NCBI RefSeq assembly: GCF_000426825.1
Contig: NZ_AUGC01000018.1
Location: 1 to 47,284, forward strand
Origin: Thermonema rossianum DSM 10300
GTDB taxonomy: Bacteria; Bacteroidota; Bacteroidia; Cytophagales; Thermonemataceae
Direction: 5' to 3'
Length of the DNA stretch: 47,284 nt
Shown in pieces: positions 39,962 through 45,434 of the stretch (positions within the stretch are counted from its first letter, which is position 1; the number at the start of each line of letters is the position of its first letter). The position numbers were made by a program, and so were the translations under genes. The notes under the pieces were generated by a model, which searched no databases, was not told the origin of the DNA, and was given only the letters and a program-made list of their open reading frames with translations.

Positions 39962-40011
39962 ACCCATTGGGTACGGTATCAATTTTGCTTATATTCAAGA
40001 GTATAAGCAAA
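39962..40011 (+). promoter_or_regulatory. Two inverted repeats upstream of the four-cysteine genes
   Basis: ACCCATTGGGT (39962-39972) is a perfect palindrome about its centre. TTTGCTTATA (39984-39993) and TATAAGCAAA (40002-40011) form a perfect 10-bp inverted repeat with an 8-base spacer ending 12 bases before the start codon at 40024. They could be operator sites or a 5'-UTR hairpin over the ribosome site. A corA terminator is an alternative for the second, although no T-run follows. Confidence 0.45.
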
Positions 40012-40023
40012 CAACCGTTTATT

Positions 40024-40470
40024 ATGAAAAGCCCTCTCCTTCTCCTCTTTCTTTTGCTGAGCCTTTCTTTTACTTATGCTCAAAACAACACACCGCCGGC
40101 AAACCAAGCAGAACAGTTGGCACATGACCTTTGCACCTGCGTTTCCGATTATTTTGAAGGCATGCACCCCGCCATTCAGAGCTACATGAAAGACATGCTG
40201 GAATTGGGGGAAGCAGAAGCCACCCGCCTGTTCAGTGAAAAAATAGAAAACATGTCTGCCGAAGAGCAGCAAAAAGTGCAACAAGATGCGCAGCGTATGC
40301 AAGACATCGCCAACGACCCGGCATTTGCCCGCTGTGCTCAACTGGTGCAGGATGCTACCATGAGCGATGAGCAAGCACTTGACTTTCAAAACTACCTCAT
40401 GAATGCTTCTGCCTGCAGTCTTATGCGCACCTTCATGCTGCTGGGACAAGCCCGGCAAGCAAGCGAGTAA
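40024..40470 (+). CDS. Secreted four-cysteine-domain protein, single copy
   Basis: 148 residues from ATG 40024. Signal peptide MKSPLLLLFLLLSLSFTYAQ. One helical domain with Cys spacing CxC-x64-C-x26-C, starting HDLCTCVSDYFEGMHPAIQ and continuing through MSAEEQQKVQQDAQRMQ. The same domain occurs twice in the next gene. I do not recognise a named family. Two disulfides in the periplasm or at the surface are likely. Probably cotranscribed with the 40514 gene (43 bases apart). Confidence 0.82.
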   Translation: MKSPLLLLFLLLSLSFTYAQNNTPPANQAEQLAHDLCTCVSDYFEGMHPAIQSYMKDMLELGEAEATRLFSEKIENMSAEEQQKVQQDAQRMQDIANDPAFARCAQLVQDATMSDEQALDFQNYLMNASACSLMRTFMLLGQARQASE

Positions 40471-40513
40471 ACTCATTTTATTTCTCATTTCTCACCTCCA
40501 AACCCTCAACTTT

Positions 40514-41356
40514 ATGAAACGTCCCCTTGCTTCCCTTTCTTTAGCCTTCAGCTTCATGGCTTTGCTGTGGGCACCCACACAGGCACAAGACATCCGCCGG
40601 CTTACCGGCGAAGCCTGCGCATGCATCGATAGCAAAGTAAAGCAGTATCATCGAATCATCGTGCAATATATGTACGATTATGTGGACCTGGGCGAAGAAA
40701 CTGCAGGGCGCAACCTCAAATCGCGCTATGCCGGACTCAGTGCCGAAGCCCAACAGCAGGTGCAAGAAGATATCAACGCTCTGGATGCCGAAATTGGCAG
40801 CATAGTAGGCAACTGCCTGAGCACCATCAAAGGCATGAACCTGTCTGATGCCCAAATGGATGTACTCAAACAAGAGCTGTCTGACAACAAACAATGCTAC
40901 CCTTTGCTTTATTACATTGCCACCAACAGCAATGACAGCAAAACGGAAGAAAAAGAAAAAGACACCCCTTCTGCCATTGACCCCAATCAAGAAGCAAGTG
41001 CCCTTGCCGAGGACATATGCGACTGTGCCTACAGGAAGATAGACCGCCTGCACCCCATCGTGCAAGAGTTTTTGATTGAGCTCATAGACCTCGAAGACAG
41101 CGACCACATCGTGAGCAACTACAACCGTCGCTACGATAAACTCAACGAGCAGGAAAAAGAAAAGGCATCGCAAGACCTCGCCTATGTGCAGAGTCCCGCC
41201 TTCAAGGATTATATCTACGAATGCCTGAGTGTGGTGAGTTCTTTGGATGAAGCGGCTTATGACGCACTATTAAATGCCGTCAAAGAAGAACCGTACTGCA
41301 AAAAGATGCGTGGCGCCATTACTGTCATCAACATTTCACAAAAAGAAGAGGAATAA
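40514..41356 (+). CDS. Secreted four-cysteine-domain protein, two copies
   Basis: 280 residues from ATG 40514 (in-frame starts further up overlap the preceding gene). Signal peptide ending PTQAQ. Domain 1 begins GEACACIDSKVKQYHR with CxC-x63-C-x26-C; a charged linker (KTEEKEKDTPSAIDPN) follows; domain 2 begins EDICDCAYRKIDRLHP with CxC-x65-C-x24-C. All three copies in the two genes share an E/Q-rich central helix after a LSAE/LNEQE/MSAEE turn. No catalytic motif. Function unknown. Ends before a bidirectional hairpin terminator. Confidence 0.82.
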   Translation: MKRPLASLSLAFSFMALLWAPTQAQDIRRLTGEACACIDSKVKQYHRIIVQYMYDYVDLGEETAGRNLKSRYAGLSAEAQQQVQEDINALDAEIGSIVGNCLSTIKGMNLSDAQMDVLKQELSDNKQCYPLLYYIATNSNDSKTEEKEKDTPSAIDPNQEASALAEDICDCAYRKIDRLHPIVQEFLIELIDLEDSDHIVSNYNRRYDKLNEQEKEKASQDLAYVQSPAFKDYIYECLSVVSSLDEAAYDALLNAVKEEPYCKKMRGAITVINISQKEEE

Positions 41357-41393: not shown

Positions 41394-41434
41394 AAAAGCC
41401 TGCCTTTGTCTGTTCACGGCAAAAGCAGGCTTTT
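41394..41434. terminator. Bidirectional hairpin terminator
   Basis: AAAAGCCTGC (41394-41403) pairs with GCAGGCTTTT (41425-41434) around a 21-base loop, with A-run before and T-run after, so it can end both the four-cysteine operon (+) and the acyl-CoA dehydrogenase transcript (-). Confidence 0.85.
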
Positions 41435-44627: not shown

Positions 44628-45434
44628 ATGAAACCTGCTCTCTTCTTTTTTATCCTGTGGCTGTGTGGCGCCACGCTCCCCTTCACAGCCCAAGCTCAAA
44701 CATGGCAGGAAGCCTTCCAACAAGGATGGACACTTTACCAAGCGGAACGCTACCAAGAAGCAGCCCCTTTCTTAGAAAAAAGTTTACAATTGCTCGAAAA
44801 GGAAGCATCGCCCGATGCCACTGACTTGGCAGTTCTTACTTACCTCTTAGCCTCCGGTTATGAAAAAATGCAGCAAACCGGAAAAGCATTGCTCAAGCAA
44901 ATCAAACAGCCTTTTATTCTACACATAGCCACACACGGTTTTTTCCTGCCCGTAGAGCAAATGCAGGCCTTCCGTTTTATGCAGTGGGGCGATGCACCCG
45001 GGCAATCAATCATACAAAACCCGCTCTACCGTACAGGTTTGTTACTGGCAGGCGCCGAAAACACTTTGCGTGGCGACACCGGCGGCGAAGCAGAGAACGG
45101 CATCTTGTTTGCTGCCGAGGTGCAAGAGTTGCCCCTGCTCGGTTGCCAGCTGGTGGTCCTTTCTGCCTGCGAAACCGGCTTGGGCGAACTGCAAAACGGC
45201 GAAGGCGTCTATGGTCTGCAGCGGGCTTTTATGGAAGCCGGTGCCGAAGCCGTCATCATGAGTCTGTGGCGCGTAGATGACCAAGCCACCCAAAAGCTGA
45301 TGCAATTGTTTTATTCTTTCTATATTCGGGAAAAGCAAAGCATCGACGAAGCCTTCAGCCATGCCATACAAATGCTCAAAGCAGAATATCCTGCCCCTTA
45401 CTACTGGGGCGCCTTCGTGTTGATACAGAACTAA
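44628..45434 (+). CDS. CHAT-domain protease, apparently shortened
   Basis: 268 residues. Signal peptide to about 24 (AQAQ), a TPR-like pair of helices (25-85, WQEAFQQGWTLYQAERYQEAA), then directly the second half of a CHAT (caspase-HetF-associated) domain: His103 in HIATHGFFLP and Cys181 in LSACETGLGE, plus MSLWRVDDQATQKLM and YYWGAFVLIQN. Catalytic pair intact. Usual Bacteroidota CHAT proteins with TPRs are 800-1100 residues, with many TPRs and about 90-100 further CHAT residues before ATHG; those are missing, as if an in-frame deletion joined the first TPR to the CHAT core. Whether it is folded and active is uncertain. Confidence 0.8.
   Translation: MKPALFFFILWLCGATLPFTAQAQTWQEAFQQGWTLYQAERYQEAAPFLEKSLQLLEKEASPDATDLAVLTYLLASGYEKMQQTGKALLKQIKQPFILHIATHGFFLPVEQMQAFRFMQWGDAPGQSIIQNPLYRTGLLLAGAENTLRGDTGGEAENGILFAAEVQELPLLGCQLVVLSACETGLGELQNGEGVYGLQRAFMEAGAEAVIMSLWRVDDQATQKLMQLFYSFYIREKQSIDEAFSHAIQMLKAEYPAPYYWGAFVLIQN

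What the first reader, a model, noticed from the sequence alone, without database searches (positions are those of the whole stretch)
40024..41356. Three copies of an unnamed four-cysteine secreted domain (CxC-x63..65-C-x24..26-C)
One gene has one copy and the next has two, all with the same Cys pattern, same E/Q-rich middle helix and a signal peptide. Spacing counts: 64/26, 63/26, 65/24. This looks like a distinct, internally duplicated Bacteroidota domain of about 110 residues.
Basis: seen in the sequence. Interest (0 to 1): 0.6.

Follow-up and report, generated by a model that had tools for sequence, protein, structure and literature searches.

The report
Unnamed four-cysteine secreted helical domain
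Two neighbouring bacterial genes encode three copies of a small exported all-helical domain with four near-invariant cysteines; it belongs to a real but uncatalogued protein family whose job is still unknown.

Summary
Their similarity is far beyond chance. Profiles built from them find relatives in 7 of 8 genomes of the window's own family (own included) and 6 of 15 of a second one. They also reach a genus holding a Balneola record and, as lipoproteins, another order. Of 23 profile matches, 21 keep all four cysteines, one is cut by a contig end and one has lost two. No Pfam, NCBIfam or PDB match was acceptable. AlphaFold gives a confident seven-helix domain (pLDDT 89.6). The variant that lost two cysteines (1 and 4) has no visible signal peptide, which suggests disulfides C1-C4 and C2-C3. 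Tandem copies recur, and two-domain proteins arose at least twice. In the sister species gene 1 is a pseudogene. Most likely this is a disulfide-braced extracytoplasmic binding module rather than an enzyme; the ligand is unknown.

The parts
40024..40470 (+). gene 1: exported single-domain protein, 148 aa
   Evidence: intact here, pseudogene in the sister species
40024..40080 (+). likely Sec signal peptide of gene 1 (19 aa, ending before Q)
   Evidence: read by eye; no predictor run
40105..40467 (+). four-Cys domain copy A (CxC-x64-C-x26-C)
   Evidence: profile matches; model
40514..41356 (+). gene 2: exported two-domain protein, 280 aa
   Evidence: 68% identical intact orthologue in the sister species
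40514..40585 (+). likely Sec signal peptide of gene 2 (24 aa)
   Evidence: read by eye; no predictor run
40586..40936 (+). four-Cys domain copy B1 (CxC-x63-C-x26-C)
40931..40972 (+). Lys/Glu-rich flexible linker between the two domains (model residues 117-130, pLDDT below 50)
40985..41353 (+). four-Cys domain copy B2 (CxC-x65-C-x24-C)
39984..40011 (.). inverted repeat ending 12 bases upstream of gene 1; role unknown
   Evidence: a similar repeat stands in the sister species with a changed but still complementary pair
41394..41434 (.). inverted repeat (15-nt arms) with A/T runs at its ends, between gene 2 and the convergent acyl-CoA dehydrogenase gene; probable bidirectional terminator
   Evidence: not picked up by the terminator scan, whose loop limit of 8 it exceeds (11 nt between the arms)

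Best explanation
The three copies belong to an uncatalogued family of exported helical domains of about 120 residues found in Bacteroidota and relatives. After Sec export as a free periplasmic protein (here) or as a lipoprotein (other lineages), each domain folds into about seven helices. Two disulfides brace it, most likely nested: Cys1-Cys4 and Cys2-Cys3, with the CxC motif in helix 1 clamped to helices 5 and 7. The domain probably acts as a non-enzymatic binding or adaptor module in the envelope; its surface varies while its scaffold is kept. Repeated tandem duplication and fusion would make arrays or two-headed versions, as in gene 2. Shown by calls: family, Cys conservation, predicted fold, recurrent duplication, purifying selection. 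Inferred: export route, disulfide pairing, binding function. Unknown: the ligand.
For: Homology and export-type N-termini. Relatives: 13 of 390 genomes of the order, 7 of 8 of the own family, both with the own genome included; 6 of 15 of a second family; counting only matches with the Cys pattern, 3 of 58 of the Balneola-holding family and 13 of 199 genomes of another order. Cys: of the 23 matches, 21 carry the four-Cys pattern, one (L017) is cut by a contig end, one (L027) has lost two. 25 of 25 domains typed into one search have exactly four (L017 and L027 not among them). In a chosen 42-row set 41 do; 39 of these rows come from profile matches and 3 (G1248_a, G1242_a, G1275_c2) were taken for their Cys pattern beside a match. 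Beyond Cys only A6 (32 of 42), D61 (34), P22 (26), L98 (25) and G114 (24) pass 55%; no His, Met or Tyr column exceeds 17 of 42, so no family-wide catalytic or metal-ligand set is seen outside the cysteines. Fold: pLDDT 89.6; two-domain model pLDDT 83.0, pTM 0.49, with similar helix patterns and a disordered linker. Pairing: the signal-less paralogue in G005 lacks Cys1 and Cys4 only. Recurrent duplication: window d1+d2 clade 97/94 and G1241/G1275 b+c1+c2 clade 96/85, parted by a 99/96 branch; six G065 copies 100/96. Selection: dN/dS between the two sister species 0.30 for P0002 and 0.04 for CorA by NG86, 0.59 and 0.07 by YN00 (ratios); the lipoprotein 0.041-0.102 in 10 of 10 pairs among five closer loci and 0.14-0.34 in 4 of 5 pairs with L074, the neighbouring control 0.006-0.031 in the 12 of 15 pairs that gave a value.
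Against: No ligand, partner or conserved neighbour was found: flanking genes differ between lineages. Gene 1 is dead in the sister species, so it is dispensable there. The pairing rests on one variant, whose start codon is itself uncertain. The structure alignment held only 7 rows. By eye, a two-domain relative in the G1241 array has lost several Cys and breaks the rule; it was not in the counts. At the thresholds used the profiles also pick up unrelated helical stretches, so raw tallies overstate.
Confidence: 0.55

Rival explanations
1. A haem- or metal-binding envelope protein, working like the mycobacterial haemophores: a small secreted helical bundle that carries haem or copper.
For: Weak profile similarity to PF16525 MHB (2 of 19 members, best E 0.029) and TIGR04529 haemophore-related (2 of 19, best E 0.013); small, exported, helical.
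Against: Those E-values are at chance level: clearly unrelated models scored better in the same scans (DHX37_C 0.0055; FliD 0.0048). No His/Met/Tyr column exceeds 17 of 42; the profile search of PDB sequences listed six chains up to E 1, none a haemophore. I saw no haem or metal uptake gene beside the genes, apart from the CorA-type transporter upstream in the window and its sister (mostly read by eye), and CorA is not beside the gene in the other lineages inspected.
Confidence: 0.13
2. An envelope immunity or inhibitor protein that neutralises delivered toxins or proteases; arrays arise by gene duplication.
For: Tandem arrays and two-domain fusions arising repeatedly, patchy distribution, a probable transfer between a Microscillaceae lineage and Balneola (clade 98/92), gene decay in the sister species, raised dN/dS of gene 2.
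Against: No effector-like gene was seen beside the loci looked at (by eye). Strong purifying selection and the same neighbour in 6 of 7 loci of genus g284 (L073 differs) are unlike fast-turnover immunity. PADLOC, which covers anti-phage systems only, gave one chance-level match (LeoB, E 0.0061).
Confidence: 0.12
3. A thiol-redox protein in which CxC is a redox-active disulfide.
For: Near-invariant CxC in helix 1; a thioredoxin-like gene lies divergently beside the family gene in both Raineya-type records read.
Against: The G005 paralogue keeps Cys2 and loses Cys1, so the motif does not behave as a unit; the middle residue varies freely; the model is all-helical, without the strands of a thioredoxin fold; no thioredoxin was seen beside the other loci read.
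Confidence: 0.08

Closest known systems
Mycobacterial haemophore families (PF16525 MHB, TIGR04529)
   Same: Small exported helical proteins (recalled); weak E 0.029 and 0.013 similarity in 2 of 19 members each
   Different: Similarity at chance level; Cys number and haem ligands differ (recalled), and no conserved ligand columns here
CHCH / twin CX9C helical-hairpin proteins (recalled)
   Same: Helices braced by two disulfides, nested there (recalled) and probably here
   Different: Spacing is CxC-x57..66-C-x24..42-C, not two CX9C motifs; about seven helices and a much longer domain
Uncharacterised Bacteroidota lipoproteins of the G690/G1241 type
   Same: Same family by profile: profile A3, which held no lipoprotein, found G690 at E 1.7e-10; same Cys order, tandem copies and a two-domain member
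   Different: Many carry a lipobox Cys in addition (by eye); they lack the HP and GE motifs of the window's side; their two-domain form arose separately

Membership tests
Four-Cys exported domain family proposed here | CxC-x57..66-C-x24..42-C within one domain | tested here: met
   All three window copies; 21 of 23 profile matches (one cut, one variant); 25 of 25; 41 of 42 chosen rows
Four-Cys exported domain family proposed here | Significant profile match | tested here: met
   The window copies are in the profiles by construction; relatives outside the profile matched, e.g. G690 E 1.7e-10 and G788 E 4.8e-34
Four-Cys exported domain family proposed here | Signal peptide or lipobox | tested here: inconclusive
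   Seen by eye in both window proteins and in most relatives printed; the G005 paralogue shows none; no predictor available
PF16525 MHB / TIGR04529 haemophore | Profile match at a significant E-value | tested here: not met
   Best E 0.029 and 0.013, 2 of 19 members each
PF16525 MHB / TIGR04529 haemophore | Haem binding | not testable with these tools
   Needs spectroscopy
Any solved fold | Structural match to a PDB chain | tested here: inconclusive
   Foldseek: none at E <= 0.001, best E 3.8; VIA second look: best Z 3.2, rmsd 6.1, 83 aligned
CHCH / twin CX9C | Two CX9C motifs | tested here: not met
   Spacing

The most novel reading that the evidence does not exclude
A new helical fold and a new class of envelope binding domain: a disulfide-locked module that Bacteroidota and Balneola relatives repeatedly duplicate into arrays and two-headed proteins to capture different extracellular ligands or incoming antagonists.
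Probability: 0.25. Interest if true: 0.6.

Novelty: new variant of a known kind. Interest (0 to 1): 0.42.

Why it matters
It would add an unnamed domain family, with a testable disulfide pattern and a confident fold prediction, to genomes where many exported proteins carry no family name. The repeated origin of arrays and two-domain forms, and one paralogue that lost its export signal and half its cysteines, are natural experiments on how disulfides are gained and lost. Without a ligand it remains a family description rather than a mechanism.

Tried and rejected
Known-family placement: Pfam, NCBIfam, PHROGs and PADLOC gave only chance-level or below-cut-off matches. The lowest E was a spanin2 model, E 7e-5 but 23.2 bits against a cut-off of 100, to one lipoprotein in L079; it covers residues 23-113 from near the lipobox, and I read it as a lipoprotein-start artefact. 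The best PDB sequence match was E 0.0087 to an immunoglobulin-binding protein A construct, a helical bundle.

Fold libraries: PDB by Foldseek, no match at E <= 0.001 for either model (best E 3.8 and 0.68); viral library likewise (best 1.7); VIA second look at the single-domain model, best Z 3.2.

Upstream inverted repeat as a regulon motif: the pattern occurs at three places in the genome (control reading: one). The other two fall inside open frames, one of them in a Lon-type protease frame named by eye, so I do not treat it as a shared operator.

Conserved neighbour: none across lineages. Within genus g284 six of seven loci share a response-regulator gene; L073 does not.

Rows dropped from counts: L035, L064-L067, L081, L082 and L089-L092. 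They match helical stretches, and a scan found no open frame with the Cys pattern in any of these 11 loci. Thus the raw tallies are 3 of 395 (own included; 1 of the 2 others kept), 5 of 395 (own included; 3 of 4 others kept), 15 of 199 (13 kept) and 4 of 58 (3 kept). Not in the 42-row tree though members: L017 (cut), L049, L063, L069-L071. The fourth gene of the G1241 array (L096 5197-6108), by eye a degenerate relative with fewer Cys, was in no count. Searches printed only frames that fit a Cys pattern, so Cys counts made from those prints alone would be biased; the count over the 23 matches is not.

Full report
Observation. The two genes at 40024-40470 and 40514-41356 lie 43 bases apart on the + strand. 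They sit between a CorA-type transporter gene upstream and a convergent acyl-CoA dehydrogenase gene downstream. The first protein has one domain, the second two. Identity to the first copy is only 26% and 20%, but BLASTP (E 3e-12 and 6e-10) and shuffles (0 of 1000 reach any of the three observed scores) show common ancestry. A random placement of four Cys gives a comparable spacing in 72 of 200,000 draws.

Relatives. The window's genome shows no further copy (protein query, profile A3: three matches, all in these genes). Profile searches found the domain in 13 of 390 genomes of the order and 7 of 8 of the own family, own genome included in both, and in 6 of 15 of a second family. By record titles and matching contig lengths the carriers include Raineya orbicola, an uncultured Cytophagales bacterium, a Microscillaceae bacterium and Balneola sp.. 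The start of the abstract of PMC5982127 (seen in the listing) says Raineya is closest to Thermonema; I infer, without proof, that the window comes from a Thermonema-like organism. A phylum-wide draw gave 5 of 395 genomes including the own one; three of the four others have the Cys pattern, all of one genus, whose G893 holds the named Balneola contig by length. A profile without any lipoprotein row found a lipoprotein member in another order at E 1.7e-10. A search of that order gave 15 of 199 genomes, of which 13 show the Cys pattern.

Family features. Of the 23 matches, 21 carry the four-Cys pattern, one is cut by a contig end and one has lost two Cys. In 25 of 25 domains typed into there are exactly four Cys, and in a chosen 42-domain set 41; three of those 42 were taken for their Cys pattern beside a profile match, not by the profile itself. 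Outside the Cys only Ala6, Asp61, Pro22, Leu98 and Gly114 pass 55% identity. In the 24 rows outside the lipoprotein order an HP motif (His 16, Pro 19 of 24) and a GE..A motif (21, 19, 21 of 24) are added. No His, Met or Tyr column exceeds 17 of 42, which argues against a family-wide haem site.

Structure. AlphaFold on seven rows gives an all-helical domain, mean pLDDT 89.6, pTM 0.76, helices at 9-26, 30-42, 44-56, 60-74, 80-90, 96-108 and 110-128. The Cys fall in helix 1 (both of CxC), helix 5 and helix 7. The two-domain protein shows a similar helix pattern in each half (helices 4 and 5 run together in the first half), with a low-confidence linker at 117-130 (pLDDT 83.0, pTM 0.49). Foldseek found no PDB match at E <= 0.001; the VIA second look reached Z 3.2 only. 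That neither proves nor excludes a new fold.

Disulfide pairing. G005 carries two tandem genes: a canonical exported one and an open frame of 145 residues stop to stop (113 from its first Met) without a visible signal peptide. The latter has lost Cys1 and Cys4 and kept Cys2 and Cys3. Paired loss suggests C1-C4 and C2-C3 bonds.

Evolution. On the tree (midpoint root) the two domains of the window's gene 2 group together (97/94) with their orthologues. The b, c1 and c2 domains of the G1241/G1275 arrays group together (96/85), and a 99/96 branch parts the two sides, so two-domain proteins arose at least twice. Six copies in G065 form one clade (100/96), a lineage-specific expansion. The two Balneola-genus rows group with a Microscillaceae row (98/92), which suggests transfer between these lineages. 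In the window's sister species the second gene is intact (68% identity) while the first is a remnant with a stop at codon 24 and further small deletions. Between these species dN/dS is 0.30 for gene 2 and 0.04 for CorA by NG86, and 0.59 and 0.07 by YN00 (ratios of the values). In genus g284 six of seven loci have the lipoprotein beside the same response-regulator gene (L068-L072 and L074); L073 does not. Its dN/dS is 0.041-0.102 in the 10 pairs among L068-L072 and 0.14-0.34 in 4 of 5 pairs with L074 (one undefined); the control gene gave 0.006-0.031 in 12 of 15 pairs (three undefined); dS is near saturation in many pairs. The domain is therefore under purifying selection but evolves faster than its neighbours.

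Function. No partner gene is shared across lineages (many neighbours named by eye). Export, a variable surface on a fixed Cys scaffold, duplication and fusion fit a binding or adaptor module best. Haem or metal carriage, immunity or inhibition, and thiol-redox chemistry are kept as rivals with lower weight.

Novelty. Pfam, NCBIfam, PDB sequence, PHROGs and PADLOC searches gave no acceptable placement. Three paper searches (only the listings and abstract starts were read) showed no description of it, but they were narrow, and the library lacks most subscription journals.

Noticed in passing
window 44628-45434: A secreted CHAT-domain (caspase-like) protein with a short TPR lead and only the later part of the CHAT profile (positions 125-287 of 289), as if internally deleted; no such open frame was listed at the corresponding place of the sister species (L099).
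   Followed up: partly
window 39984-40011: Inverted repeat (13-nt arms, 92% complementary) ending 12 bases upstream of gene 1; the sister species has a similar one with a compensated pair although its gene 1 is dead.
   Followed up: partly
L100 5012-5446 (- strand): Family member without a visible signal peptide that has lost Cys1 and Cys4, in tandem with a canonical exported copy.
   Followed up: yes
L096 3210-6108: Array of four genes between an hldE-like nucleotidyltransferase gene and a phosphoglycerate mutase-like gene (names by eye); the last gene looks like a degenerate relative with fewer Cys and has no Pfam match.
   Followed up: partly
L057 5422-5736 and L058 5421-5735: A thioredoxin-like gene (WCGPC motif, by eye) stands divergently beside the Raineya-type family gene in both records.
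   Followed up: no
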